Shown: piece by piece, positions 11,637-41,416 of the stretch | Layout of the letters: each line of letters opens with the position of its first letter | Position numbering within the stretch: position 1 is the stretch's first letter | NCBI RefSeq assembly: GCF_037976325.1 | Contig: NZ_CP150265.1 | Location: 4,087,501 to 4,151,500, forward strand | Origin: Paenibacillus sp. FSL K6-3182 | GTDB taxonomy: Bacteria > Bacillota > Bacilli > Paenibacillales > Paenibacillaceae | DNA: 64,000 bases | Direction of reading: 5' to 3' | Position numbers and translations under genes: made by a program | The notes under the pieces: model-generated | The model's input: only the letters and a program-made list of their open reading frames with translations | What the model was told of the DNA's origin: nothing | The model's database searches: none

Positions 11637-13115
11637 TCACCTTTTCCTTTTGTTTAACATCGCCGAAGAGAAACGTGACCTTCTGAATGGATCAGCAAGC
11701 AACGCAGATAACCAGTCTTTCATTCGCAAGGAGGATACCGGTTCTAGATAGGAAAGCCCAAACGAATCGAGCCTGCATAAATAGATCAGAATCAGAAACA
11801 TGCACAGAAAGAAACCGTAAATGCCAAGCATAGAGGAAATCAGCAAAATAAAAAGTCTGAGCAAGCTGACTGTTCCTGACAACGACTGATTGACCAAACT
11901 AAATGTAGCTACCACCGAAATAGCAATAACAACAAGCAATGTCGGTGAAGCAAGTCCAGCCTTTATTAACGAGTCTCCAATAATTAAACCGCCGACGATT
12001 CCGATGGTTTGTCCAACAGCTTTAGGCAGCCGAACGCCAGCTTCTCTAAGCAATTCAAATTGAAATAACAGCAGCAATGCTTCAAGGAAAGAAGGCATAG
12101 GAACACCTTCACGAGATATGACTACTGTTGATAATAAGGAAAAAGGGATTTGATCCAGATTTACGGTCGCAATGGCAATCCAGAAGCCAGGTAAAAAAAT
12201 ACTGAGGACGAGCCCCATTATGCGAAGGGTTCGTTGGAGCATGACATAAAAATATGGGAAATGGACATCCTCAGGTGATTTTAATAACTCAAAAAAGTTG
12301 CTCGGTCCGATCAGTACCATGGGTGATCCGTCTACTACAATGATAAATCTCCCCCGCAGAAGGGTTTCAATAACAAAATCAGGGCGACCAATATAATCAA
12401 TTAATGGAAACAGCGAGAAGGTTCGATCCGATAACCATTGCTCCAACTGCCCACTGCTTACCACACTTTCCAAATCAATGTTACTCAATCGTTTACGTGC
12501 TTCGGCTATCATTTCCGGGTTCGCTTTATGACTAAGATAAAGCAGAGATACTTCGGTTTTGCTAATGTTCCCAATGACGAACTGCTCACTGAACAATAAA
12601 CCCGTTTGCATCCGTTTCCGAATGAGTGAGATATTCGTAAACAAATCTTCCGTGAAGGCGTCTTTTGGCCCCTTAATTGAAATTTCTGTATTCGATTCCT
12701 GCAACGACCGCTGTGGAATCTTAGAAATGTGAACAACCCAAAAGTCCACTGCTCCTTCACAATATATAATCAAGCTGCCGCAAAATAAATGAGACACCAT
12801 ATCTTCAGCTGTCGTTTTTATTGCGAATAAGGGTAATTCGTCCACTTGAGCCTGTACTTCATCCGTACCGCATAACATGGCGTTAATATACTGGCACATG
12901 CGGGTGAAATAGATGTTCAACTCCGTTTTATCAACCATTCCTTCACAATAAAATGCCGTCAGCTTATCCTGCATCTCCAGTTGCGGCAATGGGGGAAATT
13001 GCACATCTGAGTAATTGGAGAATACATCTATCAATTGGCTCTTCCTTAGGCTTCCACTTTGCAGGCTAGTTTCTAGATCAACAAAAAGCTTTGATTCTTC
13101 AAGCAGCTGATTCAT
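11637..13115 (-). CDS. GerA family spore germination protein (A subunit)
   Basis: A 492-aa A subunit of a germinant receptor: a large N-terminal cytoplasmic domain (about 1-240), then an integral membrane domain of about five helices (MLQRTLRIMGLVLSIFLPGFWIA, QTIGIVGGLIIGDSLIKAGL) and a short basic tail. The ATG at 13115 (MNQLLEES) overlaps the gerB stop by 4 bp and has an AGAGGAAG ribosome site, so the longer open frame to 13187 is not used. It resides in the spore inner membrane. Confidence 0.93.
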   Translation of the reverse strand: MNQLLEESKLFVDLETSLQSGSLRKSQLIDVFSNYSDVQFPPLPQLEMQDKLTAFYCEGMVDKTELNIYFTRMCQYINAMLCGTDEVQAQVDELPLFAIKTTAEDMVSHLFCGSLIIYCEGAVDFWVVHISKIPQRSLQESNTEISIKGPKDAFTEDLFTNISLIRKRMQTGLLFSEQFVIGNISKTEVSLLYLSHKANPEMIAEARKRLSNIDLESVVSSGQLEQWLSDRTFSLFPLIDYIGRPDFVIETLLRGRFIIVVDGSPMVLIGPSNFFELLKSPEDVHFPYFYVMLQRTLRIMGLVLSIFLPGFWIAIATVNLDQIPFSLLSTVVISREGVPMPSFLEALLLLFQFELLREAGVRLPKAVGQTIGIVGGLIIGDSLIKAGLASPTLLVVIAISVVATFSLVNQSLSGTVSLLRLFILLISSMLGIYGFFLCMFLILIYLCRLDSFGLSYLEPVSSLRMKDWLSALLADPFRRSRFSSAMLNKRKR

Positions 13116-14194
13116 TGGGCTTCCTCTCTTCGATGTGGCATATAGGTGATCATAAAGAGTATCGCCGTTATGGCTACTCCAAACCACAGTGAATAGCTAT
13201 AGAAGTAGCGCTGAATGAACGCCTGCATGCTAATATCACTAATCATTAATAGCGAAGGTATAGAAATGACAACTGTTATGCAAATCATAATCGTTTTTGA
13301 ATATTTCTCAGAACCACGTCCAATAAGTTGAGCTAAAAAATAGATGATAAGGGCCGTTCTCACGATACTTCCGGCCATTAATTGAAAAGCTGCAAAAAAG
13401 TCTACATGCGAAATATGTCTTCCGATCATCACCAGCCTCCACTGTTCAAAAGCGGGAAACCGAAAATTTTCAGCCTGGATCGGCCCAAAGGAAGCTAAAG
13501 ATCCTATAGTAGGTCCCATGATCAATCCCACTAATAAGGTAAGCAGCACAAAAACGGTGCTATAATTCAAAGGTTTCTTCAATTTATGCTGTAATAGAAG
13601 CAGCACCATGAGGTCTATGCTCCCTCCAAAAACGACCACTATTCCTCTCAGATCTGGACCTATTCCTTCTGTCAAAATGGGTTGCAGCATGCCGTAATCT
13701 TTGCTGTTCTTTGTCATAATAGCTACGCCGATTCCCAATATCCAAACGACAGGCAATAATACGGTAGACATATATACGATGGTTTTGAGTCCCCCTCTAG
13801 CAGCGCAGTAAGCCAAGAAAATAAAGCTGAGGATAACGATAGCACTCGGTGTTCTCGGGAGGAAATAAATATTGACGTTTTTTGTTGTATCAAAAACAAT
13901 CATCATGCCGGCTACCAGTAAATATAGAGCGAATCCACCGCCAATGACATTAAAACCGATTTTTCCGATTCGGCCTTCAATCCAGCTTTGAAACGATAAA
14001 GTACTCATCGATTTTAAAATCCAATATAAGATCAGGCTCCAAACAATCAATCCAGCATAAGCAAGCAGAATACTAATCCAGGCATCGCGTCCCGCTGCTT
14101 TTAACAGATGCGGAATGATTAGTACATGATTCGATATTCCGAGCGATAACAACAATAAAAAAATGATTTGAAGTCTAGAAAAGGATACTTCCAC
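13112..14194 (-). CDS. GerB family spore germination permease (B subunit)
   Basis: A 360-aa APC-like membrane protein with about ten TM helices, first gene of the germination operon. The N-terminus SFSRLQIIFLLLLSLGISNHVLIIPHLLKAAGRDAWISILLA is typical of GerB/endospore permeases that bind the germinant. Start codon GTG (14194) follows a perfect GGAGGTG. The operon order B-A-C differs from the textbook A-B-C order of gerA in Bacillus subtilis. Confidence 0.92.
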   Translation of the reverse strand: MEVSFSRLQIIFLLLLSLGISNHVLIIPHLLKAAGRDAWISILLAYAGLIVWSLILYWILKSMSTLSFQSWIEGRIGKIGFNVIGGGFALYLLVAGMMIVFDTTKNVNIYFLPRTPSAIVILSFIFLAYCAARGGLKTIVYMSTVLLPVVWILGIGVAIMTKNSKDYGMLQPILTEGIGPDLRGIVVVFGGSIDLMVLLLLQHKLKKPLNYSTVFVLLTLLVGLIMGPTIGSLASFGPIQAENFRFPAFEQWRLVMIGRHISHVDFFAAFQLMAGSIVRTALIIYFLAQLIGRGSEKYSKTIMICITVVISIPSLLMISDISMQAFIQRYFYSYSLWFGVAITAILFMITYMPHRREEAQ

Positions 14195-18506: not shown

Positions 18507-19910
18507 CTATTCTGTTCGCCACTCGTCGAGGATCATTTGGGCAACTGCCGCTAAAGTACGAATGTCAATTGCATTTATGCCTAGCACATCCGCTTTCTCA
18601 ATTTCAGACCAGTTCGGATCTGCTGAGGTTACGCCGTAGAACTTCGCAATAATCGATAGATCTCGAATCGTAACCTTCGTTTGTCCCTCGATTAATGTCA
18701 CGATCTTCGCTGTGAATACTTGAACAGCTTTGTTTAGCAACGTTACAGCTTCATCCACCTGCCACTGACTGCTGCCAGCGTTTTTGGCCGTATTAATAGC
18801 TGCTTGAAGCGCCGCTTTTGATCCTGCAGCATACTTTCCAACCTTAGTCCCTTCAATCGCCCTGTCATGTTTCGTCTGTGCTGCTGCAATCGCAGCGTTC
18901 AATACGGTTCTGTCCACAGGAATCGATGGAATGACCGAGTCGGCAAACTGTTTCATAGCCGCATTCAAAGCATTAAGCGCACCAGCAACTTCCTCACCTG
19001 TCGCATTCGCATCATTCTTGACGGCTGTCGCGCTGTTGATTGCTGCTTGCAATGCTGCTTTAGCTCCAATTGGATACTGACCAGGTAAAGTTCCTTCCAC
19101 CGCAGCTTCATGAGCGGACTCCGCTTGCTGGATTGCTGCATTCAGTGCCGTTTTATCAGCAAGATTCACTTCGATCAATAGCGACGCTTGGGACACATTC
19201 ATTATCGTTCCTTTGCCATTCATCGATACTTCGAAATCAGACAACGATGCGGTCGTGCTGCCTGCCTTCGCATCTGCCTTCACCTTACCGTGGAGGCTGA
19301 ACAAAGGACCACTGTCGATACCGCCTTGCTGCTCACCCGTGGTTGCCATAATGATTCGAATCTGGCCAAGTTCTGGTTTAACCGCACTCCCGAATACAGC
19401 GAAATTCGGCTTCAACGATTGAATGGCTGACGTATCTAACGCTTGAGATATGCCTTCTTTCACTGTCTGGAATTCAAACTTCTGCGGATCATAATGAAAA
19501 ATAACATCAAGAGCCGTGAAATTCGAACTTATATTGTCCGTTCCAATTGTCCACTCTGCCTCCTGCCCTGCGAAGACCATTGCAGGACCTGACAGTGTGG
19601 CCATATCTTTTTCTGAAGCAACTGCGGTTACTTTGACATTCAGCTCAGCTGTTTTTGCTCCATCTTCCGTCTTCGCCGTTATGAGACCTGTTAATGCTTC
19701 CGCTCCCTTATTGGTTGCCGTAACGGTTGCTTTGGTTGCTGCACTAGCCTCATCATAATGAACATTCGTGACAACGATGTTCTCATGATTAGAGACAAAA
19801 TGCACATTTTTGTTTGTTGCATTTGCCGGAAAGACGGTCGCAGAAATTTCAATGCTTTCACCATCCTTCAATTCGATGGAAGAACGATCCAGCTTTAGTT
19901 CAGTAACAGG
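18507..19910 (-). repeat. C-terminal module cassette, copy 1 of a 1.4-kb direct repeat
   Basis: This part encodes Ig-like, cohesin-like, FIVAR, FIVAR and dockerin-like modules (468 residues). The same cassette, 468 residues long and with long runs of identical DNA, ends the other GH78 gene at 25953-27355. The enzyme parts before it are much less alike. Confidence 0.8.
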
Positions 19911-22900
19911 GATATTTGCACTTACTTCGAAACGCTTGATTGCTTGCGTCGTTCCATTGCCTGCAACCACTGTATAAGTTCCCGAAGACGCATCTTTTTC
20001 TATTAAATAGGATGCACTAAATACACCGCCAGGCAATTCTTTATTGAACAACATTGCTTGATCCGGCCCTAGTACCTTTACCTCCACTTTATCGAGTGTC
20101 GTATACCCCGCTATCGTTATGGAGTCCCCAGCTACTCTAGCAGGAATATCCTGTAATGAGACATATTCTGCGTTCAGCGGCATCGTCCAAACGTCGGCAA
20201 TCGAAGGATCATAATTGCGTCCTTCCTCATCTTCTTGGAACCGAACAGTCACCTTGCCATCCTTTGTTAAAGAGATATCATCAACAACAAATTGATAGGT
20301 TACAATACCTCGGCTATCTTTTTCATTCACGCGGCTGAGCACTTTCGTTCCGTTTACCAATACATAATAATCTTTCATTTGTGCCCGATCATACGTTTCG
20401 ATTGCCCTAATGATGAAAGGTTTGCCTGACTCAACGGTCATATCAAATTGGAAATAACCATTTGCGTCTCCATGATTAACATACCTTCTCGTTAATCCCT
20501 CCTCAACATTTGCACCGGACTGAGCGGAAAACTTTACATTATGTTTTTGTTCAGAGCCTTGTTCGCCAACGTCTACATGATCGTAAAAGTCTAGCGGCGG
20601 GTTTTTATAACGCACTTGAATGGTCGTACTGCTCTTGGCTGCTTCAGCTCCATTAAACGAAGCAATCGCATGTAGCTCAGCAGCCGTTTCAACGGCAAGA
20701 AGCGGTGATTTCACCTCAAAACTAATATTCTTTTCTTCACCGGCTTCAAGGCTATAGGCTTGGTGTGCAGGGGAAACCGTCCAGTTTAAAGGAGCACTGA
20801 GCTCTATAGATCCTTCAACGGAAAAGCTTCCTTTATTTTGAATGGTTGTATTAACCGTTGCTGTACCGCTAGGCTCGATTGTTGCTGGTTCAGCCTTTAA
20901 TGCTTTGATAATAATTGGCGAATCGATCTTTATTGTCGTCTTCAAAGGCACTTCCACTGTTGCATCATTTATTTTGTAGCTTCCGCTGCCAACTATATTA
21001 AATAGGCTAGTGGGTTTTTGTTGCTCCGACACTTTCACACGAAATGCAGCAGCAAACGTTTCACCTGGTTTAATGACAGACGTTTGGTTATCTCCTATCG
21101 AAGTGACTTCCCATCCTTCGGGTTTCTGGAGAGTATAACGAACATCATTAATGCTCACATCGCCATCGTTAGTTGCTTTCACTTCAACTGTAAATGTATT
21201 TCCGGGCAGTACGGATACCTCGGAAGGGCTAATTAACCACTTTATTCCTAGCTTTTCATTACTAATGGCTGACAAAAACGTTGTTGCGTTTGAAACAAGA
21301 TTTGCTAATTTTTTAGCAATAATGTCGTTTATTGACCCAGCATTGTTTTGTTCTTGCAACCATAGCTGTAAACCGTCTGTTTCATATAAAGCATGATGAA
21401 CTTGCTCGATAAAGAGAGTATCATCACTTGCTTTGTACGCCTCAATACTTGCTTCAATTCGGCTTGCAAGCGCCTCGCCTTTATCTGAAAGTGCATGAGT
21501 TTGTTCGCTGGTGAGCTCTCCATTATTGGAATAGCTTATTACTTCATTTTGAAATTTCACCGCTTCATCAAGTGCACTGCCTAACTCTCCAATAATAGGA
21601 TCAACTACAAACTGATAATCACCCGAGCCTACAGTGAATACCGCATTGCCTTCCTCCATACCAGCAAATTGTACACCTTCCACCGACAATGCAAATTGGC
21701 CGCTCTCTGTTACTGCCCACTTGCTGTCTGCAGGGATATAGACCGTAGCCGTTGTGTTTGCTGGAATCGTGACATGCTGGCTAAAAATATCCCCTTCTTT
21801 TTTCCAATCGCTTACAATCATGCCGTAAACAGAATTGTACGATCCTTTGGCACTAGTCAAATCTCCACCAGGTCGAGGTTTAATCAAAATATGCTTATAA
21901 CCCGGGCTTGCAGGGTCCTGTTGAATGCCGGCAATATTTTGATACATCCAGTCTCCGACTGCTCCATAAGCATAATGGTTAAAAGAGTTCATGCCAATGT
22001 CTTGGAAACTGCCATCCGGCTTAATAGAATCCCAGCGCTCCCACATCGTAGTCGCACCATTTTTGATCTGATATCCCCATGAAGGATAAGTGTCATTGTT
22101 GAGCAATCGGTAAGCAACATCCAAATGTCCCGTTTCGCTCAATACCGGCAATAAATCTCTCGTCCCAAGAAAACCGGTTGATAAATGCCAGTCGCGCGCT
22201 TTAATCAGCTCTACCAAATGATCCGCCGCAGCTTGACGTTTCGATTCGGGAACCAAATCCATGTACAAAGCCAAGACGTATCCCGTTTGGCTATTTCCTT
22301 TAACTTTTCCATCTTCGCTAACATAGGCTTTAACAAACGCTGCTTTCACTTGCTCATAAAGCTGCTCGTACTTGTCGGCATCTTCTTGACGGCCGATGGC
22401 ATGCCCCATTTCGGATACCAGTTTTGTACTGTACGCAAAATAAGCGGTAGAGATTAAATCTCCTGGCGTTGGATCATTCACATCCAGCCAATCACCATAC
22501 ATCGACGACGGACGAATAAGTCCAGAGCTATTTTTTCTCATATATTCGATCCAGTGAACCATTTCATCATAATTTTCTTCAATAACACGGATATCTCCGT
22601 AACGCTGCCAAATGGTATACGGAACGGTAACGCCAGCATCCCCCCAGCCGGCATTGCCTCTTTCTCCGAGAACATTAGGCGCTACATCGGGAAAAGCACC
22701 GTTAATCGATTGTCCATCTCTCAAATCTCTCATCCATTTGCTTCCTATAAACTTTGCCACGTCCATATTAAAAGCAGCAGCTCCAATAAAGACATTGATA
22801 TCACCGGTCCAACCCAAACGCTCGTCACGCGCAGGCGTATCGGTAGGAACCTCTAAAAAATTGCCTCGCTGCCCCCAAGTAATATTGCTTTGCAGTTGAT

Positions 22901-24821
22901 TCAACATCGCACTAGAAGTTTCTAATTTGCCGCTAAACGGTGCTGCTGTATGCATGACCAGCCCTGTAACGGCATCCATACTCGGCACACCGGGATAACC
23001 CGTCACCTCCACATAACGGAAACCATGAAACGTAAACTTCGGCTCGTATACTTCATCTCCGCCGCCCTTCAAGGTATAACGGTCCGTTGCTTTTGCCGCA
23101 CGCAAGTTTGCTGTATAGAAGGTCCCGTCCGGGTTTAACACCTCTGCATGTCGCAGAGTAACCGTTTGACCTGCTTCACCGCTTACTTTTAGCCTTACGG
23201 TTCCGACCATGTTCTGCCCTAAATCAAACACATATTTGCCAGGTTCCGGCTCTGTCATCTTAATCGGCTTAATTTCTTCAATTATTTGTACCGTTGGGCC
23301 ATCCTGGGCGACTAGCTTCCCAGTCACTTCATCCTCTAATTTCTGAACCGAATCCCAGCTCGATGCATCGAAGGCAGGAGTATCCCATCCGTCTAATTCC
23401 TTCGTTGCATCATAGGTCTCTCCCATCAAAATACTAGAAGATACAATTGGTCCTGTAGCCCATTTCCATGATTGATCCGTTCCAATTGTTTCTGTTGAAC
23501 CGTCTGTGTACTCAAGATTTAATTGCATGAACAAATAATTGCTATCGCCATAAATGTTCGGACCAATAAAACCGACATGTCCGGAATACCATCCCTCAGC
23601 CAATATAGCGCCAATGACGTTGTCACCGTTTTGAAGCAAATCAGTTACATCATAAGTCTGGTATTGAATATGCTTCGTGTAATCTGTCCATCCTGGCGTA
23701 AATAAATCTCTGCCTATACGTTTGCCGTTAATGCTAGGTTCATATATTCCGAGAGCGCTGGAGTAAAGTCTTGCTTTTGCAATGGACTTCTCTAAAGAGA
23801 AACCTTTGCGAATGTAAGGAGGCGAAGCTGTAATTTTTACGTTTTTCCCCCACGGCGACTCCCCATAGGACGCGACGATCATCGCAGCTGACCAGCTGCT
23901 GTCATCAAAATCTGATTTCTCCCATCCCTCCATCTTTACCTTGGCCGCTTTCAAACCTTGATCCATATTCAATTGAAGAGGTGTTCCTTCCTCAAATACC
24001 ACTTTCAAGCTGCCAAGAAGACCAGCAGGTCCGCCATCGTTTGATGTTTGGATTGCAATCGTATTAGATCCAGGAATGAGTGCACTTGAGACATCTACAA
24101 TTTTGCCTTCTTTCCATGAATCGACCGCTTTGATAGAACTGCCCATTCGCTTTCCATTCACATATAACACGAACCCATCATCCGCAGTTAATAAAAATTT
24201 TCCTTGTGTTATTGTCCGGTCTAACGGCAATTGAATGGTTTTGCGAAAATAGCGATCTCCTGCAGGAGCATTTGAAGCCGGATTCCCTTCCGGAAACCAA
24301 ACCCATTTAAGACCTTCTGTTGTCATATTGTTCGCGTCGCTCATACCGATCCATTCCGCTTGCCAATCCGAACCATGGAGAAGACCCATTTCCCACCAAG
24401 CAGGATCACTCCATTCTGAAGCCTTCTCATTGTTCAAGTCCCATACTTTTACTCTCCAAAAGTAACGTTTGCCAGACTCCAGAGGTTTGCCGTCATAAAC
24501 GACATTTACCGATTGATTCGAATCAACTATATCGGTATTCCACACGTCCGGTTGATTATCCAGCAATTTCTGTTTGGTGCTAGCTACCTGAATGGCGTAT
24601 GCTGTTTGAAGCTGTCCACGTTTATCGGACTGAAGCTTCCAACTCATCCTTGGCTTCACCACATCAATACCGATCGGATTGTTCGTGTACTCCGTCGTTA
24701 AATCGGTTACCGCCATCGTTGCTCCCGTTCCACCCGCTTCGCCATACGCCGTACTAGTCATAGGCAAGCATAATGTGAAGCCAATCACTAAAGCTAATAG
24801 AAGACTCATGGTTTTTCTCAT
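18507..24821 (-). CDS. Secreted multimodular alpha-L-rhamnosidase (GH78) with cohesin- and dockerin-like modules
   Basis: A 2104-aa exported enzyme. Signal peptide about 1-27; GH78 N-terminal Fn3-like domain 37-157; an inserted beta-sandwich 165-285; rhamnosidase N domain about 330-500; concanavalin-like domain 518-612; six-hairpin catalytic domain about 617-960 with DERLGWTGD (666-674) and WERWDS (927-932, expected base Glu928); C-terminal sandwich to 1050. Then come a helical segment, two NEW3-like domains (1195-1400), another sandwich (1410-1550), an Ig-like domain (1636-1735), a cohesin-like domain (1738-1886), two FIVAR repeats (1890-1960, 1970-2040) and a dockerin-like tail (2041-2104) that lacks most calcium ligands. 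It should release terminal rhamnose from plant or algal polysaccharide at the cell surface. It is the last gene of the locus, 42 bp after the cohesin-SLH gene. Confidence 0.9.
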   Translation of the reverse strand: MRKTMSLLLALVIGFTLCLPMTSTAYGEAGGTGATMAVTDLTTEYTNNPIGIDVVKPRMSWKLQSDKRGQLQTAYAIQVASTKQKLLDNQPDVWNTDIVDSNQSVNVVYDGKPLESGKRYFWRVKVWDLNNEKASEWSDPAWWEMGLLHGSDWQAEWIGMSDANNMTTEGLKWVWFPEGNPASNAPAGDRYFRKTIQLPLDRTITQGKFLLTADDGFVLYVNGKRMGSSIKAVDSWKEGKIVDVSSALIPGSNTIAIQTSNDGGPAGLLGSLKVVFEEGTPLQLNMDQGLKAAKVKMEGWEKSDFDDSSWSAAMIVASYGESPWGKNVKITASPPYIRKGFSLEKSIAKARLYSSALGIYEPSINGKRIGRDLFTPGWTDYTKHIQYQTYDVTDLLQNGDNVIGAILAEGWYSGHVGFIGPNIYGDSNYLFMQLNLEYTDGSTETIGTDQSWKWATGPIVSSSILMGETYDATKELDGWDTPAFDASSWDSVQKLEDEVTGKLVAQDGPTVQIIEEIKPIKMTEPEPGKYVFDLGQNMVGTVRLKVSGEAGQTVTLRHAEVLNPDGTFYTANLRAAKATDRYTLKGGGDEVYEPKFTFHGFRYVEVTGYPGVPSMDAVTGLVMHTAAPFSGKLETSSAMLNQLQSNITWGQRGNFLEVPTDTPARDERLGWTGDINVFIGAAAFNMDVAKFIGSKWMRDLRDGQSINGAFPDVAPNVLGERGNAGWGDAGVTVPYTIWQRYGDIRVIEENYDEMVHWIEYMRKNSSGLIRPSSMYGDWLDVNDPTPGDLISTAYFAYSTKLVSEMGHAIGRQEDADKYEQLYEQVKAAFVKAYVSEDGKVKGNSQTGYVLALYMDLVPESKRQAAADHLVELIKARDWHLSTGFLGTRDLLPVLSETGHLDVAYRLLNNDTYPSWGYQIKNGATTMWERWDSIKPDGSFQDIGMNSFNHYAYGAVGDWMYQNIAGIQQDPASPGYKHILIKPRPGGDLTSAKGSYNSVYGMIVSDWKKEGDIFSQHVTIPANTTATVYIPADSKWAVTESGQFALSVEGVQFAGMEEGNAVFTVGSGDYQFVVDPIIGELGSALDEAVKFQNEVISYSNNGELTSEQTHALSDKGEALASRIEASIEAYKASDDTLFIEQVHHALYETDGLQLWLQEQNNAGSINDIIAKKLANLVSNATTFLSAISNEKLGIKWLISPSEVSVLPGNTFTVEVKATNDGDVSINDVRYTLQKPEGWEVTSIGDNQTSVIKPGETFAAAFRVKVSEQQKPTSLFNIVGSGSYKINDATVEVPLKTTIKIDSPIIIKALKAEPATIEPSGTATVNTTIQNKGSFSVEGSIELSAPLNWTVSPAHQAYSLEAGEEKNISFEVKSPLLAVETAAELHAIASFNGAEAAKSSTTIQVRYKNPPLDFYDHVDVGEQGSEQKHNVKFSAQSGANVEEGLTRRYVNHGDANGYFQFDMTVESGKPFIIRAIETYDRAQMKDYYVLVNGTKVLSRVNEKDSRGIVTYQFVVDDISLTKDGKVTVRFQEDEEGRNYDPSIADVWTMPLNAEYVSLQDIPARVAGDSITIAGYTTLDKVEVKVLGPDQAMLFNKELPGGVFSASYLIEKDASSGTYTVVAGNGTTQAIKRFEVSANIPVTELKLDRSSIELKDGESIEISATVFPANATNKNVHFVSNHENIVVTNVHYDEASAATKATVTATNKGAEALTGLITAKTEDGAKTAELNVKVTAVASEKDMATLSGPAMVFAGQEAEWTIGTDNISSNFTALDVIFHYDPQKFEFQTVKEGISQALDTSAIQSLKPNFAVFGSAVKPELGQIRIIMATTGEQQGGIDSGPLFSLHGKVKADAKAGSTTASLSDFEVSMNGKGTIMNVSQASLLIEVNLADKTALNAAIQQAESAHEAAVEGTLPGQYPIGAKAALQAAINSATAVKNDANATGEEVAGALNALNAAMKQFADSVIPSIPVDRTVLNAAIAAAQTKHDRAIEGTKVGKYAAGSKAALQAAINTAKNAGSSQWQVDEAVTLLNKAVQVFTAKIVTLIEGQTKVTIRDLSIIAKFYGVTSADPNWSEIEKADVLGINAIDIRTLAAVAQMILDEWRTE

Positions 24822-24863
24822 ACTTTTTTTCCCCTCGACTTTCCTTTGTTATTGTTTATCGTT

Positions 24864-25877
24864 CTATTTTTGCTTCAGCATTGCAAGGATGACGACTACC
24901 GACTCAGCCCGAGTAGCATGCTCTTGAGGTGCAAACCGATTACCATTTCGCCCTTTGATTATTCCTGTCTCCACAGCTGCAGCTACGTAACCAGTCGCCC
25001 AAACAGGAATTTCTAACGCATCCACAAACTGCAGCTTCGTTTTTTGGTCTGCTTTTAGATCAAGAGCCCTCATGACGACAGCAACCATTTCTGTCCGATT
25101 AATTAACTGGTCTGCGCGTAAGCTTCCGTCATCATAACCTTTTAGTAGACCTGCCTTAACCGCTGTTGCGATATACGGTTTCGCCCACGCAGCTATTCTA
25201 TCGCTATCTTTGAAGGCAAGTTTACTGTCTGCTCCAAGTTCTAGATGAAGCGCCCGAACCATCATAGCAGAGAACTCCGCACGCGTTACTGCGCGGTTAG
25301 GAAGGAATGTTCCATCGGCATACCCCGTAACAAAACCGAGCTCTGCCGCTTCCCTAATCGCACTCTCCGCCCAATGTCCTTTAATATCTTTCCAATCCAC
25401 AGAAATAGATTTTCCAGCTACAGTTACCTGCAGCACAGGTTTCAGTTCATTCATCTCCAATTTCGAATTAACAAGCTGCACAGCTTGAAGGCTGACCTCA
25501 GCATTCCCCTCAGCCATTCGCTCAAATTTCAGAAATACCAGCTCTTTGTCCCCTGTCTCGCCAGCTGAATTTCCTGTCTTCGTATGGGCAAACCGAATGG
25601 TCCCCTTCTTTACGATCGGATCGACAGAAAAACCTGTCAAAGCAGTACGTGCTCCAACAAACTTCAATCGAGTGGAATCGTATTTCATCGAAATATCATA
25701 GGCAAATACATCGGTTAAGTTTTTTCCCACTACTGAAATTTCAGTTTTGGCTTCTTGACTAGTAATCTTTAGTTCAAAAGAAGCAGCTGCCTTATCCGCC
25801 ATTGCCGAAATGGGCATTAAACTGAACATACTGATTAAAATTGTGAATACTATCGTCATTCGTTTTGCATTCGACAT
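24864..25877 (-). CDS. Surface anchor: single cohesin domain plus three SLH repeats
   Basis: A 337-aa exported protein. Signal peptide 1-28; a cohesin-type beta-sandwich about 32-155 (FELKITSQEAKTEISVVGKNLTDVFAYDISMKYDSTRLKFVG); then SLH repeats at 163-212, 222-273 and 283-333, carrying TRAE, NRTE and TRAE at the cell-wall-polymer-binding positions. SLH triplets bind pyruvylated secondary wall polymers, so the cohesin would be displayed on the cell surface. It lies between two GH78 genes that both end in dockerin-like modules, with about 40-75 bp gaps, so it probably docks them; that link is inferred from gene order, not shown. Confidence 0.9.
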   Translation of the reverse strand: MSNAKRMTIVFTILISMFSLMPISAMADKAAASFELKITSQEAKTEISVVGKNLTDVFAYDISMKYDSTRLKFVGARTALTGFSVDPIVKKGTIRFAHTKTGNSAGETGDKELVFLKFERMAEGNAEVSLQAVQLVNSKLEMNELKPVLQVTVAGKSISVDWKDIKGHWAESAIREAAELGFVTGYADGTFLPNRAVTRAEFSAMMVRALHLELGADSKLAFKDSDRIAAWAKPYIATAVKAGLLKGYDDGSLRADQLINRTEMVAVVMRALDLKADQKTKLQFVDALEIPVWATGYVAAAVETGIIKGRNGNRFAPQEHATRAESVVVILAMLKQK

Positions 25878-25952
25878 ATCGCATGAATCCTTTCATAGCA
25901 GAGTTTATGAGGCAGGTTAGTGTGCCTGCCTCCTACTTCGAAATTCGTATGT

Positions 25953-27355
25953 CTATTCCAAGCTCCACTCTTCAAGAATCATTTGCGCAATGGAAGCTAA
26001 TACACGAATGTCGATTACATTTGCGCCGATCACATCTGCTTTCTCAATTTCTGACCAGTTTGGATCTTTGGAGGTAACACCATAGAAATTCGCTATGATC
26101 GACAGATCTCGAATCGTAACCTTCGTTTGTCCCTCGATCAGTGTCACAATCTTCGCTTTGAAAACTTGAAGAGCTTTGTTTAGCATCGTTACAGCCTCAT
26201 CTATTTGCCACTGGCTGCTTCCTGTATTCTTGGCTGTGTTAATGGCTGCCAGCAGCAGTGCTTTTGATCCCGCAGCATACTTGCCGACCTTTGTGCCTTC
26301 GATTGCCCTATCATGTTTTAATTGTGCTTCTGCAATCAATCGGTTTAACTCCGTCCTGTCACCAGGAGCTGATGGAATCACCGATTCGTTAAACACTTTT
26401 ACTGCTCCATTCAAGCCGTTAAGCGCTATGGTGACTTGCTCCACAGTCGCATTCGGATCATTCTTCACTGCAATCGCACTGTTGATTACTGCTTGCAATG
26501 CCGCCTTAGAACCCGTTGGGTACTGGCCCGGCTGCGTGCCTTCTATTGCGGCATCATGTAACACCTGCGCTTGTTCGATTGCCGTATTCAACGCTGTTTT
26601 GTCAGCGAGGAGCACTTCCATCGAGAGTACAGCTCGCGATACATTCATCATTGTTCCCTTCCCATTATCCGACACTTGGAAATCAGACAGCGATATCGTT
26701 GTATTGCCTGCTAGCGCACTCGGTTTCACCTTCCCGTGGAGGCGGAACAGATTGCCACCATCAATACCTGCTTGCTGCTGGCCTGAGGTGACCATGATGA
26801 TCCGAATCTGGCCAAGCTCGGCTTTAACCGCCGTTCCAAACACTTCGAAATTCGGCTTCAACGACTGAATGACCGATGGGTCCAGCGAGAGGTAAGTACT
26901 TTCCCCAACCGTCTGGAATTCGAATTTCTGCGGGTCATAATGAACAATAACATCAAGAGCCGTGAAGTTTGAGCTTACATTTTCAGCACCGATCGTCCAT
27001 TCCGTTCCCTGTCCTGCTATGACAGTGTCACTTCCAGACAAAGCAGCCATATCTCGTTCTGCGGAAGCTGCGGTTACCGTAACATTTAGCGCAGCCGTCT
27101 TGCTGCCGTCTTCTGTCGTCGCAGTTATGACGCCATTTACTTGATCTGCTCCCTTATTGGTTGCTGTTACTGTTGCTTTGGTAGTATTACTTGCTTCATC
27201 ATAATGAACATTCGTGATGATAATGCTCTCGTGATTCGACTCAAAATGCACCAGCTTATTTGCAGCATTTGCCGGAAGCACTGTCGCAGCAATTTCGATG
27301 CTTTCTCCATCCTTCATTTCGAGCGAAGTACGATCTAGGCTTATGCCAGTAACGG
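25953..27355 (-). repeat. C-terminal module cassette, copy 2 of a 1.4-kb direct repeat
   Basis: The last 468 codons of the upstream GH78 gene, same orientation as copy 1 (18507-19910). By eye the DNA is mostly identical over long runs, with insertions absent. Confidence 0.8.
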
Positions 27356-30300
27356 GCAAGCCAGCTTGATTGTTATATACCTCCAGCTCAGCTAATTGGA
27401 GCCTATAGTAAATATCGTCTGATGCCATTTCTCCAAGCTTATTGACCGAAAGCCTCACATATCTAGCTGTCTGGTTTTCAAACGTATACAGCTGTGGCTG
27501 CATCAACGGGTTCGGCTCTCCAGTCATTCTCTTTACTTCTAAATAATCTCCTCCATCAGCCTTAACCTGAATAAGGAAATCAATAGGATAGGAGGCGGTT
27601 CGTGAATCTGTTGTACTGGAGTCCGTTCTTGGATACAACACCACACTATTCAGATCTTGATTCGCACCCAGATCAATCTCTACCCAAAGCGGGTTGTTTT
27701 CCTGAGATTGCGAAGGTGAGCCTGTTGATGAATATTTTCGCGCCAAATTGCCGTCCGTGAGCCCTGCTGCCCCCCACTCTGGCGAAATCTCCAACGTTTC
27801 GCGTGCGGTTGCCTTTTTGCCTAACGCCAGATTCGCCCCGGTAACTACGATCAACCGAATAGAGGAAGTAAGCACAACTTCTCCTGATTTTACCGTTGCA
27901 GTAATTTCTGCGGAGCCGGGTCCAACTGCAGCTGCGATTCCGTTATCAGCAACTTTGATCACATTAGTGTTGCTGCTCTCATACTTAATCTCAGCATTAG
28001 TGAAATCGGCTTCCATGCCATTATCCATACTTCCGCTTAATGTGAGCTGAGTTTGTTCACCTTGCTGCAGCTTCGTTGCTTTGCTGCTCAAGTTGATGCT
28101 CTCCAGCTTTAAGTTGGAATCAGCCATTGTACTAGCGAACGAGTATGCTCCAGATCCGACCGAATAGACTGCTTTGTCCCCTTCCATTTGCAAAAACTTG
28201 ACACCTGCGGCTTCTTCAGCAGGCTGTCCGCCTTCACTCACGGATGCTTTATCTGCCGCTGGAATGTATACGGTCGCTGTTGTATTAACTGGAATTGTCA
28301 CATTCAGCTTGAAGGCTGAGCCTTCCTGCTCCCAGCGGCTCTTGATCAAGCCGTAAATAGACTTGTATTCTCCATTCACATGGCTAAACTCTCCACCAGG
28401 TGTAGGCTGAATGATAATATGTTTGAATCCGGGCTGCTCAGGATCAGCCTCGATTCCTGCCGCATAGCGGAACATCCATTCTCCAACGGAGCCAAGCGAA
28501 TAATGGTTAAAAGAGTTCATTCCTGCGTCACCGAATCCATTCTCCTGTGTATAGGAATTCCATCTCTCCCAAATGGTCGTTGCGCCATTTTTGATGCTGT
28601 ATCCCCATGAGGGGTACGTATCGTTCGTCAACAAGCGGTAAGCAACCTCTGTATAGCCCGCCTCTGTAAGTACCGGCAGTAAATAACCTACACCAAGAAA
28701 CCCGGTCGACAGATGCCAGTTTTTGCTTTTAATATTTTTAACTAGATGCTCAGCAGCTTTTTTCTTGATATCTCCATCCAATAATTCCATGTGCAGTGCA
28801 AACACATAACCTGCTTGCGTATTGCCTTTGATCTGTCCGTCCAAACCAACAAACGCGGTGTTAAAAGCAGCTTTAATATCTTTGAATAATTGACTATATT
28901 TCTCCGCATCGTCTGTTTTCCCAATGATCGCTGCCATCTTGGACAACAAATTCGTACTGTATGCAAAATAGGCCGTATTCACCACATCCGTTGGTGTGGT
29001 TTCATTCACGCTCAACCAGTCCCCGTAACCACCGGCTGGACGAATGAGCTTGTTGCTGTTCGTTTTGAGAAACTCGATCCATTTCACCATCGCATCATAA
29101 TGCTCTTTGATTACGGAAGTATCGTTATAAGCTAAATACAGTGTCCATGGGATAATAACGCCTGCATCTCCCCAGCCGTTGCTTCCATTACCCATTCCGC
29201 TAACATTTGGCGCAACGTCTGGGAATGCTCCATTTGCCCCCTGCGCATCAACAACATCCCGCATATATTTCTCGTAAAACCCAGGAACTTCCATGTTGTA
29301 GGTAGCAGTGCGAACGAATACCTGCGCATCTCCTGTCCAGCCCATTCGTTCATTACGCTGAGGACAGTCTGTTGGAACGCTTAAAAAATTTCCTCGTTGT
29401 CCCCATGTGATGTTGCTATAAAGCTGATTGACCATCGGATTGGAGGTTTCAAATGTCCCGGTCTTCGGTGTATCGGTGTGAACAACAATCCCCGTTATGC
29501 TATCTAAAGCAGGTTCACCCGGATAACCAGTCACTTCTACGTAACGGAAACCGTGGAATGTGAAATGCGGTTCATATTGCTCAAGCCCGCTTCCTTTCAG
29601 GACATATTCATCTGTTTGTTTAGCTGTACGCAAGTTCTCCGTGTAGAGCGTCCCATCATCATTCAGCATCTCGGCAAACCGCAGCTTCACTTTCGTTCCG
29701 GCAGTGCCTTCGACTTTTAACCTTGCCCAGCCAACCATGTTCTGTCCCATATCAAAAATGTAAGTGCCGGCTCTTGGCTGCTTCACTGAGATCGGCTTCA
29801 ATTCTTCCGTCGCCTTGACGGTAGGGCCTACCTGTGCAACCAGCTTCCCGCGGAAATGGCTGACCTCTTTTACATCGTTCCATGATGAAGCGTCATAATT
29901 CGAACGGTTCCACTTATCCATTTCTTTGCGAGCGTCATATGTCTCTCCCATTAGAATATCGGAGTAGCGAACGGGACCCGAAGTCGTTGAATGCCAAGAA
30001 GAATCGGTCATTACCGTTTCACTAGTGCCGTCTTCATATTCAATTTTTAATTGGAATAAAAACGACAGCTCAGTTCCGTACTGATTTGGACCAACATGTG
30101 CTACATTTCCCGCGTACCAACCGTCACCCAGCATGGCCCCAACCGCATTTCCTCCTTCAAGGAGCATGTCGGTTACATCATAGGTCTGATACTGCAAACG
30201 CTTATTGTAATCCGTCCATCCCGGATTAAAGTAATCGCTGCCTACCCGTGTCCCATTTAAGCTGAGCTCATAAAGTCCAAGCGCCGTCGAGTAAACAGTC

Positions 30301-31376
30301 GCTTTACGCACTGGCTTCGCAATATCAAATTCTTTCCTCATCATAGGTGAGCTTCTGCTTTCGACTTTCTGATAAAAAGTGCCGTTCTCTACGAGAAGTT
30401 TTCCATCTTCCGTTAATTGCCCCCCTTCAAAGCTTGCTGCTTCCTTATCATCAAAATTTGCTTGAAACAACTCCTTGCCATGTTCATCCTTAATGACGAT
30501 ATTGTCGAACAAGGCGCGCTCATTCGTCCTTGCGTCTTTATGCTGACGAAATCCAATAGGACCGAACGAAATATTGTCATTTTTCATCGTGTCGATTAAT
30601 TCATTGTTGAGGTAGGTTTTGATCTCTTTGCCGTTCACTTCAATTTTCAGATGATAAGCAACATTCAATTGCTTGTCATTCGGAATGACACGTGAAATAT
30701 CTACTTCCTTCATAAGCTTCGTACCGCCGACATTCGTGTGTGGCCGAAACTGGGCATACGCTTTTTCTTTTACGTTAAACTGCCAGAAAAAATTATTGGA
30801 GGCATTAGGTCCGCCAAACAAAATCGCTGCCCCATCATTTAATATTGTAAAATCCAGCTCGATTGAATAGCTTGACGGCACGGTCGCAGGTGTGGAGGCG
30901 GCAATCCACTTGGCTTGCCAATCAGTTGGCGCGAGCAATCCCATTTCCCAGAAGCCCGGCTCACTCCATGCTGAAGCGTGATCATTGTTATCCCAAACCT
31001 TCACTTTCCAAAAATAACGTTTTCCGGATTGTAAAGCTTCTCCTTTGTATTCCACATTGTTGGAATCGCTGGACATAATTTTGCCAGAATCCCATATGTC
31101 TCCTTCATTGCCAGCCAAATGGCTCTCTTCTGAAGCGACAATGATTTGATAGGCAGTTTGCATCTGTGCTCTCTCTGTTGATTCAAGCAACCAGCTGAGT
31201 CTCGGCTTGCTGTTATCGATTCCGATTGGGTTATGGCTATACTCTGTATGTAAGTCATATGCAGTCATTTGGCCCGTTCCTTCTGCTCCGAATGCGGCTA
31301 CTGGCTGTAATAAAGCAATTACAAGAACTGTTGCTAAAAATAAACCAAGCAGCTTCTTCCTGAACAAACTATTCAT
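25953..31376 (-). CDS. Secreted multimodular alpha-L-rhamnosidase (GH78) with CBM32-like, cohesin- and dockerin-like modules
   Basis: An 1807-aa exported enzyme counted from ATG 31376 (MNSLFRKKLLGLF). Signal peptide about 1-30; GH78 Fn3-like domain 37-157; an inserted LamG-like jelly roll 165-310 absent from the other enzyme; rhamnosidase N domain 340-500; concanavalin-like domain 525-615; catalytic six-hairpin domain 620-970 with NERMGWTGD (675-683) and WERWNS (936-941). After it come an Ig-like domain (1092-1178), a discoidin/CBM32-like domain (1180-1336), Ig-like (1341-1438), cohesin-like (1440-1590), two FIVAR repeats and a dockerin-like tail (1745-1807). The open frame reaches 31484 but passes through a hairpin, so the longer start is rejected. 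A consensus cre lies just upstream. Confidence 0.9.
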   Translation of the reverse strand: MNSLFRKKLLGLFLATVLVIALLQPVAAFGAEGTGQMTAYDLHTEYSHNPIGIDNSKPRLSWLLESTERAQMQTAYQIIVASEESHLAGNEGDIWDSGKIMSSDSNNVEYKGEALQSGKRYFWKVKVWDNNDHASAWSEPGFWEMGLLAPTDWQAKWIAASTPATVPSSYSIELDFTILNDGAAILFGGPNASNNFFWQFNVKEKAYAQFRPHTNVGGTKLMKEVDISRVIPNDKQLNVAYHLKIEVNGKEIKTYLNNELIDTMKNDNISFGPIGFRQHKDARTNERALFDNIVIKDEHGKELFQANFDDKEAASFEGGQLTEDGKLLVENGTFYQKVESRSSPMMRKEFDIAKPVRKATVYSTALGLYELSLNGTRVGSDYFNPGWTDYNKRLQYQTYDVTDMLLEGGNAVGAMLGDGWYAGNVAHVGPNQYGTELSFLFQLKIEYEDGTSETVMTDSSWHSTTSGPVRYSDILMGETYDARKEMDKWNRSNYDASSWNDVKEVSHFRGKLVAQVGPTVKATEELKPISVKQPRAGTYIFDMGQNMVGWARLKVEGTAGTKVKLRFAEMLNDDGTLYTENLRTAKQTDEYVLKGSGLEQYEPHFTFHGFRYVEVTGYPGEPALDSITGIVVHTDTPKTGTFETSNPMVNQLYSNITWGQRGNFLSVPTDCPQRNERMGWTGDAQVFVRTATYNMEVPGFYEKYMRDVVDAQGANGAFPDVAPNVSGMGNGSNGWGDAGVIIPWTLYLAYNDTSVIKEHYDAMVKWIEFLKTNSNKLIRPAGGYGDWLSVNETTPTDVVNTAYFAYSTNLLSKMAAIIGKTDDAEKYSQLFKDIKAAFNTAFVGLDGQIKGNTQAGYVFALHMELLDGDIKKKAAEHLVKNIKSKNWHLSTGFLGVGYLLPVLTEAGYTEVAYRLLTNDTYPSWGYSIKNGATTIWERWNSYTQENGFGDAGMNSFNHYSLGSVGEWMFRYAAGIEADPEQPGFKHIIIQPTPGGEFSHVNGEYKSIYGLIKSRWEQEGSAFKLNVTIPVNTTATVYIPAADKASVSEGGQPAEEAAGVKFLQMEGDKAVYSVGSGAYSFASTMADSNLKLESINLSSKATKLQQGEQTQLTLSGSMDNGMEADFTNAEIKYESSNTNVIKVADNGIAAAVGPGSAEITATVKSGEVVLTSSIRLIVVTGANLALGKKATARETLEISPEWGAAGLTDGNLARKYSSTGSPSQSQENNPLWVEIDLGANQDLNSVVLYPRTDSSTTDSRTASYPIDFLIQVKADGGDYLEVKRMTGEPNPLMQPQLYTFENQTARYVRLSVNKLGEMASDDIYYRLQLAELEVYNNQAGLPVTGISLDRTSLEMKDGESIEIAATVLPANAANKLVHFESNHESIIITNVHYDEASNTTKATVTATNKGADQVNGVITATTEDGSKTAALNVTVTAASAERDMAALSGSDTVIAGQGTEWTIGAENVSSNFTALDVIVHYDPQKFEFQTVGESTYLSLDPSVIQSLKPNFEVFGTAVKAELGQIRIIMVTSGQQQAGIDGGNLFRLHGKVKPSALAGNTTISLSDFQVSDNGKGTMMNVSRAVLSMEVLLADKTALNTAIEQAQVLHDAAIEGTQPGQYPTGSKAALQAVINSAIAVKNDPNATVEQVTIALNGLNGAVKVFNESVIPSAPGDRTELNRLIAEAQLKHDRAIEGTKVGKYAAGSKALLLAAINTAKNTGSSQWQIDEAVTMLNKALQVFKAKIVTLIEGQTKVTIRDLSIIANFYGVTSKDPNWSEIEKADVIGANVIDIRVLASIAQMILEEWSLE

Positions 31377-31452: not shown

Positions 31453-31514
31453 TAGCCGGGAGTACAAGAAAGGAGTTCCTGCATGCTGCAGATCCTTCAA
31501 CGACTACCCGGCTA
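31453..31514 (-). terminator. Long interrupted hairpin between transporter and enzyme genes
   Basis: TAGCCGGG at the outside pairs with CCCGGCTA, and inner segments also pair (GAAGGA with TCCTTtC, CTGCA with TGCAG around a 3-nt loop), giving a 62-nt near-continuous stem. The minus-strand continuation is only moderately T-rich (ATTTCTTTAT). It may be an attenuator or a 3' stabilising structure for the binding-protein mRNA. Confidence 0.6.
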
Positions 31515-31557: not shown

Positions 31558-32655
31558 TTAATAAACATCCTTCCATTCAGCGATGTTAGAGGAATCGAAT
31601 TTGAAGGGATCGCCAAGCATAATTTGCGTGCCTTCACCATCTTTCACGACTTCTTTCTCACCTAGTTTGCCAGCTGTCAGCTTATCCCCAACCGCACCTG
31701 TAATCTTGCCGTTCACCAATGCGTCTGCTGCATAACCGGACAAGTAACCAACATCAATCGGATTCCACAAATACATCCACTGACATACGCCGCTCACGAT
31801 ATATTCCGCCATTTCACTTGGCAGGCCAAGACCGGTCAATTGTACTTTCCCAGTGAGACCCTTATCCGTTAAAACCTTGCCCGCTGCCGCGATTCCTACA
31901 GTCGTAGGTGCAATAATGCCTTTCAGATCAGGATACGATTTCAAGAGCGCCTCTGTCTCGGACACGCTTTTATCGCGCAAATCATCACCGTAAGCCACTT
32001 TAACGAGCTTGATCTTACTGTATTTTGAATCCTCCAACTCTTTCTTCATCCATTCGATCCACGTGTTTTGGTTTGTCGCTTGCGAGGTCGCGCTCAGGAT
32101 CGCAATTTCGCCTTCGCCGCCAATCATTTCCGATACACCTTGAATTAGTGTGCGGCCGATACGCTCAGGATCTGCTTGATTTACATGAACCATGCGACTG
32201 GCTGCGTTAACCGCTGAATCTAAAGAAAGAACTTTAATTCCTTGATTCATCGCTTTCTTCAGCGCCGGCTGGAGCGCATCCGGATCATTTGCCGCAATTG
32301 CGATCACGTCCACCTTTTGCGAGATAAGCTCTTCAATCATTTGAATTTGTGCTTCTGCTGTCGGCTGATCTGGCGCCTTCAAAATCGCTTCATATCCGAG
32401 CTCTTCAACAGCATTTTTATAGCCTTCCATTTGCTTCTCACCGTATGGATTACCCGTGTTTTTAAAGATAATGGCATATTTCTTCTTTTTCGCGCTGTCC
32501 GTTGTGTCATTTCCTTTGTTTTTCTCTGTAGCTTCGCTCTTGTTGCCGCCCGTATTTTTGGAATTACTGCCGCTGTTGCCTCCTCCGCATGCGGTTAACA
32601 TCGAGATCGTAAGCAAAAAAGTTAAGCATACAGATAACACTTTGTTTCTTCTCAT
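31558..32655 (-). CDS. Sugar ABC transporter substrate-binding lipoprotein (RhaS/LsrB-like)
   Basis: A 365-aa periplasmic-binding-protein-like lipoprotein. Lipobox LTACGGG, then a Ser/Asn/Lys-rich linker, then a type I fold (YAIIFKNTGNPYGEKQMEGYKNAVEELGYEA; VIAIAANDPDALQPALKKAMNQGIKVLSLDSAV). The sequence resembles binding proteins of CUT2 carriers for rhamnose and autoinducer-2. It is the last gene of an ATPase-permease-permease-binding protein operon directly upstream of a GH78 gene, so rhamnose or a short rhamnoside is the most likely ligand. Confidence 0.88.
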   Translation of the reverse strand: MRRNKVLSVCLTFLLTISMLTACGGGNSGSNSKNTGGNKSEATEKNKGNDTTDSAKKKKYAIIFKNTGNPYGEKQMEGYKNAVEELGYEAILKAPDQPTAEAQIQMIEELISQKVDVIAIAANDPDALQPALKKAMNQGIKVLSLDSAVNAASRMVHVNQADPERIGRTLIQGVSEMIGGEGEIAILSATSQATNQNTWIEWMKKELEDSKYSKIKLVKVAYGDDLRDKSVSETEALLKSYPDLKGIIAPTTVGIAAAGKVLTDKGLTGKVQLTGLGLPSEMAEYIVSGVCQWMYLWNPIDVGYLSGYAADALVNGKITGAVGDKLTAGKLGEKEVVKDGEGTQIMLGDPFKFDSSNIAEWKDVY

Positions 32656-41033: not shown

Positions 41034-41416
41034 GCCTTCACCCTTTTCCATTAACCGTTTGCGATAGTTTCATTAAATGATGACAAAACATTCTAGTTGC
41101 TTAACAACTGCCTTAGAATTGAAAGCGTTTTCCTAAATCAACTGAATTCTTCTTTTTATTGACGCCACCCCTCGCTGGAATTCATAGCTACTCTATTCTA
41201 CATTCAGCTTAGCTATCCTCCCATTATGTAAAATTGATAAAAGTTAAATTCAATGTTGACTCCTACACTGAAATTGATTGGTACATTGCTCACATGAACG
41301 AAACATATCGGACACATTTAGCATGGAAATGACTACTTCGAGCTATTATTTTCAGACACCATTTCCTTTTATAATGAATGGACTAACGAAATAGATTCAG
41401 AAAGGAGAAATGAAAC
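41034..41416. other. Intergenic region with divergent promoters
   Basis: No gene was found in these 383 bases. They hold the cre site (41120-41133) of the sensor operon and, near the right end, a -10 TATAAT (41370-41375) for the small ORF at 41417. Confidence 0.6.
41120..41133. promoter_or_regulatory. cre-like site upstream of the sensor operon
   Basis: TGAAAGCGTTTTCC matches the cre consensus with one mismatch at the last base. It is about 87 bp upstream of the binding-lipoprotein start, suggesting CcpA control of the sensing genes. Confidence 0.55.

What the first reader, a model, noticed from the sequence alone, without database searches (positions are those of the whole stretch)
18507..31376. 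Candidate surface rhamnosidase complex: one cohesin-SLH anchor between two dockerin-tailed GH78 enzymes
Seen: two GH78 genes flank a gene encoding signal peptide, one cohesin and three SLH repeats, all on one strand with small gaps, and both enzymes end in the same dockerin-like module. Known: SLH triplets bind the cell wall and cohesin-dockerin pairs build cellulosomes. Inferred: a minimal cell-attached complex for rhamnose-rich polysaccharide, unlike classic multi-cohesin scaffoldins.
Basis: partly seen in the sequence, partly recalled or inferred. Interest (0 to 1): 0.82.

Follow-up and report, generated by a model that had tools for sequence, protein, structure and literature searches.

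The report
Single-cohesin wall anchor for rhamnosidases
A soil Paenibacillus seems to hang rhamnose-releasing enzymes on its cell wall with a one-socket anchor protein, through a dockerin 'plug' that has lost most of its usual calcium-holding residues yet is kept under selection; such plugs are normally described as calcium-binding.

Summary
The three genes are as described: GH78 (E1), anchor (signal peptide, one cohesin, three SLH), GH78 (E2), one strand. (1) Each GH78 also carries its own cohesin before two FIVAR modules and the terminal dockerin: three cohesins and two dockerins, so enzymes could chain onto one another. (2) The dockerins keep one of six D/N calcium positions and Pfam misses them. 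They are not decaying: E1/E2 dN/dS is 0.13, and the class recurs in Paenibacillus and Cohnella. Of 146 sampled tails, 73 keep 1-3 and 73 keep 5-6 of the six positions, none 4. A cohesin-SLH gene lies within 500 bp of 52 of 73 ligand-poor and 27 of 73 canonical tails. AlphaFold2 of the E1 dockerin read in frame into the anchor cohesin gives pTM 0.73, the level my rough estimate assigns to docked modules; E1's own cohesin-FIVAR-FIVAR-dockerin gives 0.57. Binding is predicted, not shown, and co-variation does not single out the anchor as partner. Best reading: a surface-anchored, non-cellulosomal cohesin/FIVAR-dockerin system, kin to that of Clostridium perfringens and to OlpA-type anchors, in a calcium-ligand-poor variant.

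The parts
25953..31376 (-). E1: secreted GH78 alpha-L-rhamnosidase: GH78 - Big2 - F5/8C - Big2 - cohesin - FIVAR - FIVAR - dockerin (longest ORF begins at 31484)
28230..31259 (-). E1 GH78 region (Ig-N, N, ConA-like, 6-hairpin, C domains)
   Evidence: Pfam
27438..27809 (-). E1 F5/8-type C (galactose-binding-like) module
   Evidence: Pfam
26616..27047 (-).
26154..26609 (-). E1 two FIVAR modules
   Evidence: model residues 230-303 fit 2ozn_B, rmsd 1.0 over 74
25956..26153 (-). E1 calcium-ligand-poor ('class ii') dockerin
24864..25877 (-). Anchor: signal peptide - one cohesin - three SLH
25404..25790 (-). Anchor cohesin
24867..25400 (-). Three SLH repeats of the anchor
   Evidence: Pfam SLH E 5e-39, 3 stretches
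18507..24821 (-). E2: secreted GH78 with a lectin-like insert, NEW3 and DUF6805 regions, Big2-like and CARDB-like stretches below cut-off, cohesin, FIVAR x2, dockerin
21696..24710 (-). E2 GH78 region, full-length relative of 3w5m (putative rhamnosidase)
   Evidence: 1163 bits
23832..24317 (-). E2 insert matching solved lectins; probable CBM67-type rhamnose-binding module (name recalled)
19224..19571 (-).
18708..19163 (-). E2 two FIVAR modules (Pfam scores below cut-off)
18510..18707 (-). E2 calcium-ligand-poor dockerin
31558..32655 (-). Rhamnose ABC transporter substrate-binding protein (RhaS), upstream neighbour; sugar-ABC permease-like and ATPase-like genes follow to 36315
   Evidence: NCBIfam TIGR02637, 387.6 bits, cut-off 342.25

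Best explanation
This is a cell-surface rhamnosidase assembly of the non-cellulosomal cohesin/FIVAR-dockerin kind. The secreted anchor binds the wall through its SLH repeats (inferred: to pyruvylated wall polymer made through CsaB) and offers one cohesin. The C-terminal dockerin of E1 or E2 plugs into it (predicted, not measured). Each enzyme carries its own cohesin, which can take the dockerin of another enzyme, so enzymes may chain outward from the anchor (inferred). The enzymes release rhamnose close to the cell for the neighbouring Rha ABC transporter (inferred). The dockerins belong to a conserved class that has lost most calcium ligands but is under selection and predicted to fold, so docking here is probably calcium-independent (inferred).
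For: Domain content. Purifying selection on the ligand-poor dockerin: E1/E2 dN/dS 0.13; median 0.08 over 125 class-ii pairs of 70-90% identity with finite dS, not independent and with median dS 1.5. Ligand counts bimodal, 73 and 73 of 146 tails, none between. Anchor within 500 bp of 50 of 71 ligand-poor against 29 of 75 other tails at a cut of 2, Fisher p 1.4e-4; 52 of 73 against 27 of 73 at a cut of 3. Doc(E1)-linker-anchor-cohesin model: pLDDT 93-95 for residues 21-60 of the dockerin (79 and 62 on either side), pTM 0.73; my estimate is 0.51-0.56 with the dockerin placed to 10-20 A, 0.62-0.64 at 5 A, 0.66-0.72 at 2-3 A. E1's own tail: pLDDT 92 but pTM 0.57, within the 0.41-0.61 estimated without cis docking. 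CsaB and RhaS over cut-off.
Against: No binding data. pTM is indirect: no coordinates or PAE were seen, the fusion is artificial (gap stops read as Ser), the two models are not matched controls, and no negative-control fusion was folded. Co-variation does not single out the anchor: over 70 loci dockerin-anchor cohesin distance correlation is 0.34 (partial 0.02) against 0.78 for dockerin-own cohesin; within class ii alone 0.23 against 0.36. The anchor's SLH part predicts dockerin class at least as well as its cohesin does (60 against 52 of 70 at identity cap 0.5; majority guess 44 of 70). 21 ligand-poor tails have no anchor within 500 bp: 4 have one in the same region and 2 (L125, L151) have anchors split between frames. 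Some acidic residues remain in the loops: 2-5 of 8 ligand positions are D or E.
Confidence: 0.6

Rival explanations
1. The class-ii dockerin pairs mainly with enzyme-borne class-ii cohesins, giving enzyme-enzyme chains; the anchor cohesin serves other partners or only the end of a chain.
For: Enzyme cohesins fall into two groups that match dockerin class exactly (44 and 28 rows, one change each, support 94/90 and 93/86); dockerin-own cohesin distance correlation 0.78 against 0.34 with the anchor cohesin.
Against: Inheritance of the tail as a cassette explains the match equally well: FIVAR also predicts class in 70 of 70, and within one class the correlations differ little (0.36 against 0.23 in class ii). 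Does not explain why anchors lie beside so many class-ii enzymes. Fusion pTM fits docking to the anchor. Cis docking not predicted, though this does not test trans docking.
Confidence: 0.2
2. The tail is a decayed dockerin that no longer binds cohesins; the enzymes are simply secreted.
For: Most calcium ligands lost in both loops; Pfam finds no dockerin in E1 or E2.
Against: dN/dS 0.08-0.13, recurrence in many species, invariant residues in 25 aligned tails including a C-terminal Trp, conserved helices, high pLDDT.
Confidence: 0.06
3. The tail still binds calcium weakly through the acidic residues left and works as an ordinary dockerin.
For: Position 12 of loop 1 and position 1 of loop 2 are acidic in 71 of 73 class-ii tails each; other ligand positions are D or E in 0-19 of 73. 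E1 and E2 also keep Glu at loop-1 position 3.
Against: Loop-1 position 1 is never D, E or N, and loop-2 position 3 is D, E or N in 3 of 73; a canonical coordination is not possible with these residues (inference).
Confidence: 0.12

Closest known systems
Clostridium perfringens cohesin / FIVAR-dockerin glycoside hydrolase complexes (NagJ-NagH, 2ozn/2jnk)
   Same: Single cohesins and FIVAR-dockerins on glycoside hydrolases, no scaffoldin; the best sequence relative of the E1 tail in the PDB is 2jnk/2ozn (E 7e-4); cohesin and FIVAR folds match. One C. perfringens GH31 has both modules on one chain (passage of PMC12997984).
   Different: In this genome each of the six dockerin proteins found (four canonical, two ligand-poor) has a cohesin in the same open frame; a wall-anchor gene is linked; class-ii dockerins lack most calcium ligands.
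OlpA/OlpC-type single-cohesin SLH anchors of Clostridium thermocellum (3ul4, 4dh2; architecture recalled)
   Same: One cohesin plus SLH repeats (recalled); single-binding-mode dockerins recruit single enzymes to the C. thermocellum surface (passage of PMC5429695).
   Different: Found in a genome with a classic cellulosome and calcium dockerins; enzymes there do not carry cohesins (recalled).
Cellulosome
   Same: Cohesin-dockerin assembly of glycoside hydrolases at the cell surface.
   Different: No multi-cohesin scaffoldin seen in this genome: the 9 cohesin matches lie in 9 open frames; the L020 anchor adds a tenth below cut-off.
Paenibacillus curdlanolyticus B-6 multienzyme complex with SLH protein S1 (PMC6823336, passages)
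   Same: A surface multienzyme complex in Paenibacillus; its SLH domains bind the peptidoglycan layer with Kd about 0.1 uM.
   Different: The paper finds no cohesin or dockerin modules in S1 and supposes another assembly mechanism.
GH78 of 3w5m (SaRha78A, name recalled)
   Same: E2 catalytic region aligns over the full length.
   Different: E2 adds about 1000 residues of Ig-like, cohesin, FIVAR and dockerin modules.

Membership tests
GH78 alpha-L-rhamnosidase | GH78 domain set | tested here: met
   Five Pfam models over cut-off in E1 and E2; E2 to 3w5m 1163 bits
GH78 alpha-L-rhamnosidase | rhamnosidase activity | not testable with these tools
   needs enzyme assay
SLH wall anchor | three SLH repeats | tested here: met
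SLH wall anchor | CsaB-type pyruvylation gene in the genome | tested here: met
   TIGR03609 270.5 bits, cut-off 213.1; the same search rings in 8 of 14 control genomes, over the cut-off in 4
Dockerin type I (Pfam PF00404) | profile match | tested here: not met
   no match to E1/E2 tails at E up to 10 in the genome or E up to 1 in the proteins
Dockerin type I (Pfam PF00404) | two EF-hand-like calcium loops with D/N at positions 1, 3, 5 | tested here: not met
   E1 and E2 keep 1 of 6; class ii 1-3 of 6
Dockerin type I (Pfam PF00404) | homology to and same place as canonical dockerins | tested here: met
   one alignable set with class-i tails after cohesin-FIVAR; 2jnk match
Dockerin type I (Pfam PF00404) | dockerin fold | tested here: inconclusive
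   helical, pLDDT 93-95 in the core and 90-95 except the last few residues; the structure searches listed mainly the cohesin part
Dockerin type I (Pfam PF00404) | binds a cohesin | tested here: inconclusive
   pTM 0.73 fusion model only
Cohesin | cohesin profile and fold | tested here: met
   anchor just under cut-off and E1 not listed, both over cut-off
Cellulosome | scaffoldin with several cohesins | tested here: not met
   9 cohesin matches in 9 open frames; my own profile split the L017 module in two, Pfam sees one stretch
C. perfringens-type cohesin/FIVAR-dockerin enzymes | cohesin and FIVAR-dockerin on glycoside hydrolases | tested here: met

The most novel reading that the evidence does not exclude
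Class-ii tails are a calcium-independent dockerin family, shared by Paenibacillus and Cohnella, that plugs into single-cohesin SLH anchors and into enzyme-borne cohesins and so builds open-ended surface chains of polysaccharide-degrading enzymes in soil bacteria, working where pectin and soil ligands bind calcium.
Probability: 0.4. Interest if true: 0.78.

Novelty: new variant of a known kind. Interest (0 to 1): 0.64.

Why it matters
Dockerins are described as two calcium-binding EF-hand-like repeats (passage of PMC12484212). A large, selected class without most of the ligands would make the role of calcium in cohesin-dockerin docking directly testable and could give calcium-independent plug-and-socket pairs for protein engineering. 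It also suggests that surface enzyme complexes without scaffoldins are common here: 44 of 51 genomes of the genus have a cohesin over cut-off, while a recent genome survey that required a multi-cohesin protein names one Paenibacillus, among four genomes that barely met its criteria (PMC11557425, passages).

Tried and rejected
Decayed-dockerin idea: rejected on dN/dS and conservation. Class-ii dockerin tied to pectin enzymes only: rejected. A Pfam survey of about 1000 residues from the N-terminal part of 20 class-ii enzymes, picked by hand from the clusters (other class-ii clusters and singletons left out), gave GH3, PL8, heparinase II/III and GH123 besides PL11 with a GDSL esterase, GH51 and GH53; several gave only accessory or unknown domains and two (L092, L085) nothing at E 1e-5. 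Four catalytic clusters hold both tail classes, so the tail class does not follow the catalytic type. Co-evolution as proof of dockerin-anchor pairing: inconclusive. First class call by regular expression misplaced canonical tails with Q or H in loop 1; replaced by aligned D/N counts, which do not count Glu; one search adds D/E counts. One tail (L195) is intermediate: loop 1 lost, loop 2 kept. Internal repeat symmetry is not higher in class ii (helix identity 0.30 against 0.38). The structure searches listed mainly the cohesin part, one row (2ozn_B) the second FIVAR and the start of the tail. The homologue search with the anchor cohesin gave 4 clusters among 120 candidates.

Literature searches: (open-licence PMC only; listings with titles and starts of abstracts). 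None of the listings showed a calcium-ligand-poor dockerin class or a Paenibacillus/Cohnella anchor-enzyme system; most subscription papers are not held.

Full report
What is there. The window lies at 4,087,501-4,151,500 of a 7.56 Mb single-contig genome. A genome labelled same species, G033, has a contig of the same length (818,909) as Paenibacillus sp. FSL A5-0031, so this is a Paenibacillus. The locus on the minus strand is E1 (GH78), anchor, E2 (GH78), gaps 75 and 42 nt. E2 aligns end to end with 3w5m, with an insert that also matches solved lectins. Upstream lie a RhaS rhamnose-binding protein over its curated cut-off and, matching models below their cut-offs, two permease-like genes, an ATPase-like gene, an AraC/response-regulator-like gene, a kinase-like gene and a second RhaS-like protein: a rhamnose-uptake setting.

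Pfam Cohesin finds nine modules in the genome, in nine open frames; two are inside E1 and E2 (the hmmscan lists E2's but not E1's). The tail of each enzyme is cohesin-FIVAR-FIVAR-dockerin. The dockerin is not seen by Pfam. Against canonical tails in the same genome, loop 1 reads LIEGQTKVTIRDL in place of a D-x-N-x-D loop. At positions 1, 3, 5, 12 E1 has L, E, Q, D in loop 1 and D, I, A, V in loop 2. The genome also has four canonical dockerins over cut-off, each in an open frame with its own cohesin, two more cohesin-SLH anchors (L018, L020; the L020 cohesin is below cut-off) and a phosphoesterase with cohesin and SLH (L021).

How general. The E1 tail has relatives in 48 of 51 genomes of the genus at E 1e-3, counting FIVAR-only and canonical tails. 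Chains with a dockerin and a cohesin, or a dockerin and FIVAR, were kept; after removing repeats with identical last 120 residues, 146 tails remained, including the window's. D/N counts at positions 1, 3, 5 of both loops: 46 tails with 1, 25 with 2, 2 with 3, none with 4, 7 with 5, 66 with 6. A cohesin-SLH gene lies within 500 bp on the same strand for 50 of 71 ligand-poor and 29 of 75 other tails at a cut of 2 (Fisher p 1.4e-4), or 52 of 73 and 27 of 73 at a cut of 3. At the cut of 2, a Trp lies in the last nine residues of 69 of 71 against 28 of 75, and two or three FIVARs follow the cohesin in 59 of 71 against 1 of 75. The sample is biased to relatives of E1 and orthologues are not collapsed, so the p-value is only a guide. 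In a sample of the order, 105 of 392 genomes match the class-ii alignment at E 1e-20, which includes canonical tails.

Is the odd dockerin functional? E1 against E2: dN/dS 0.132 in the dockerin, 0.117 in the cohesin, 0.126 in FIVAR; 125 class-ii pairs (not independent) have median 0.08, with dS near saturation, median 1.5; orthologue pairs in G033 have too few changes to judge. So it is under selection.

Does it bind the anchor? The 75-nt gap between E1 and the anchor keeps the frame. Reading the window DNA through the gap stops gives dockerin-linker-signal peptide-cohesin as one chain; 12 other loci are also in frame. AlphaFold2 on 60 rows gives pLDDT 93-95 for residues 21-60 (79 before, 62 after), 90-98 for residues 131-250, 45-54 for 71-120, and pTM 0.73. 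I estimate pTM 0.51-0.56 if the dockerin is placed only to 10-20 A relative to the cohesin, 0.62-0.64 at 5 A and 0.66-0.72 at 2-3 A. E1's own cohesin-FIVAR-FIVAR-dockerin gives pLDDT 92 and pTM 0.57, within the 0.41-0.61 estimated for modules not docked in cis and below 0.72-0.74 for docking.

Which cohesin is the partner? In a tree of 144 cohesins, 72 anchor cohesins stand apart from 72 enzyme cohesins (100/100), and enzyme cohesins form two groups that match dockerin class exactly (94/90 and 93/86). Distance correlation over 70 loci is 0.78 for dockerin-own cohesin and 0.34 for dockerin-anchor cohesin; most of the 0.78 is the class split, since within class ii the values are 0.36 and 0.23, and 0.39 for dockerin-FIVAR. 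This favours enzyme-enzyme pairing or inheritance of the tail as a cassette (FIVAR also predicts class 70 of 70). Anchors cluster by neighbour class (3 changes; shuffled means 25 and 38), but the SLH part predicts class as well as the cohesin part (65 against 67 of 70 without a cap, 60 against 52 at identity cap 0.5), so this is not proof of pairing. I favour a model in which the dockerin can use both the anchor and enzyme cohesins.

Noticed in passing
L021:3736-7497 (G000:C1 about 5.608 Mb): A purple-acid-phosphatase-like protein with an internal cohesin (23.3 bits, just below cut-off, over it) and three SLH: a possible further socket for dockerin enzymes.
   Followed up: partly
L020:13205-13801: A thioredoxin/redoxin-family gene lies between the cohesin-SLH anchor and GH127/GH2-type enzymes; five relatives (L182, L187, L190, L191, L192) show gaps of similar size (667-734 nt), whose content was not examined.
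   Followed up: partly
L115:6086-7627 and L122:8873-10429: About 515-residue chains with cohesin-FIVAR-FIVAR-dockerin and no recognised catalytic domain (L115 scanned; L122 not): possible monovalent adaptors.
   Followed up: partly
L077 and L126: Three class-ii enzymes lie with one anchor gene, with near-identical dockerins in each locus: several enzymes per anchor.
   Followed up: no
window 39996-41051: A second RhaS-like binding protein, below the family cut-off, beside kinase-like and AraC-type genes: perhaps the sugar sensor of the locus.
   Followed up: no
window 13112-14194: Spore germination permease (2A0309 over cut-off) near the locus, no evident link.
   Followed up: no
L125:10436-11555 and L151:10423-11488: Anchor genes split between two frames (cohesin in one, SLH in the other): frameshift or sequencing error.
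   Followed up: no
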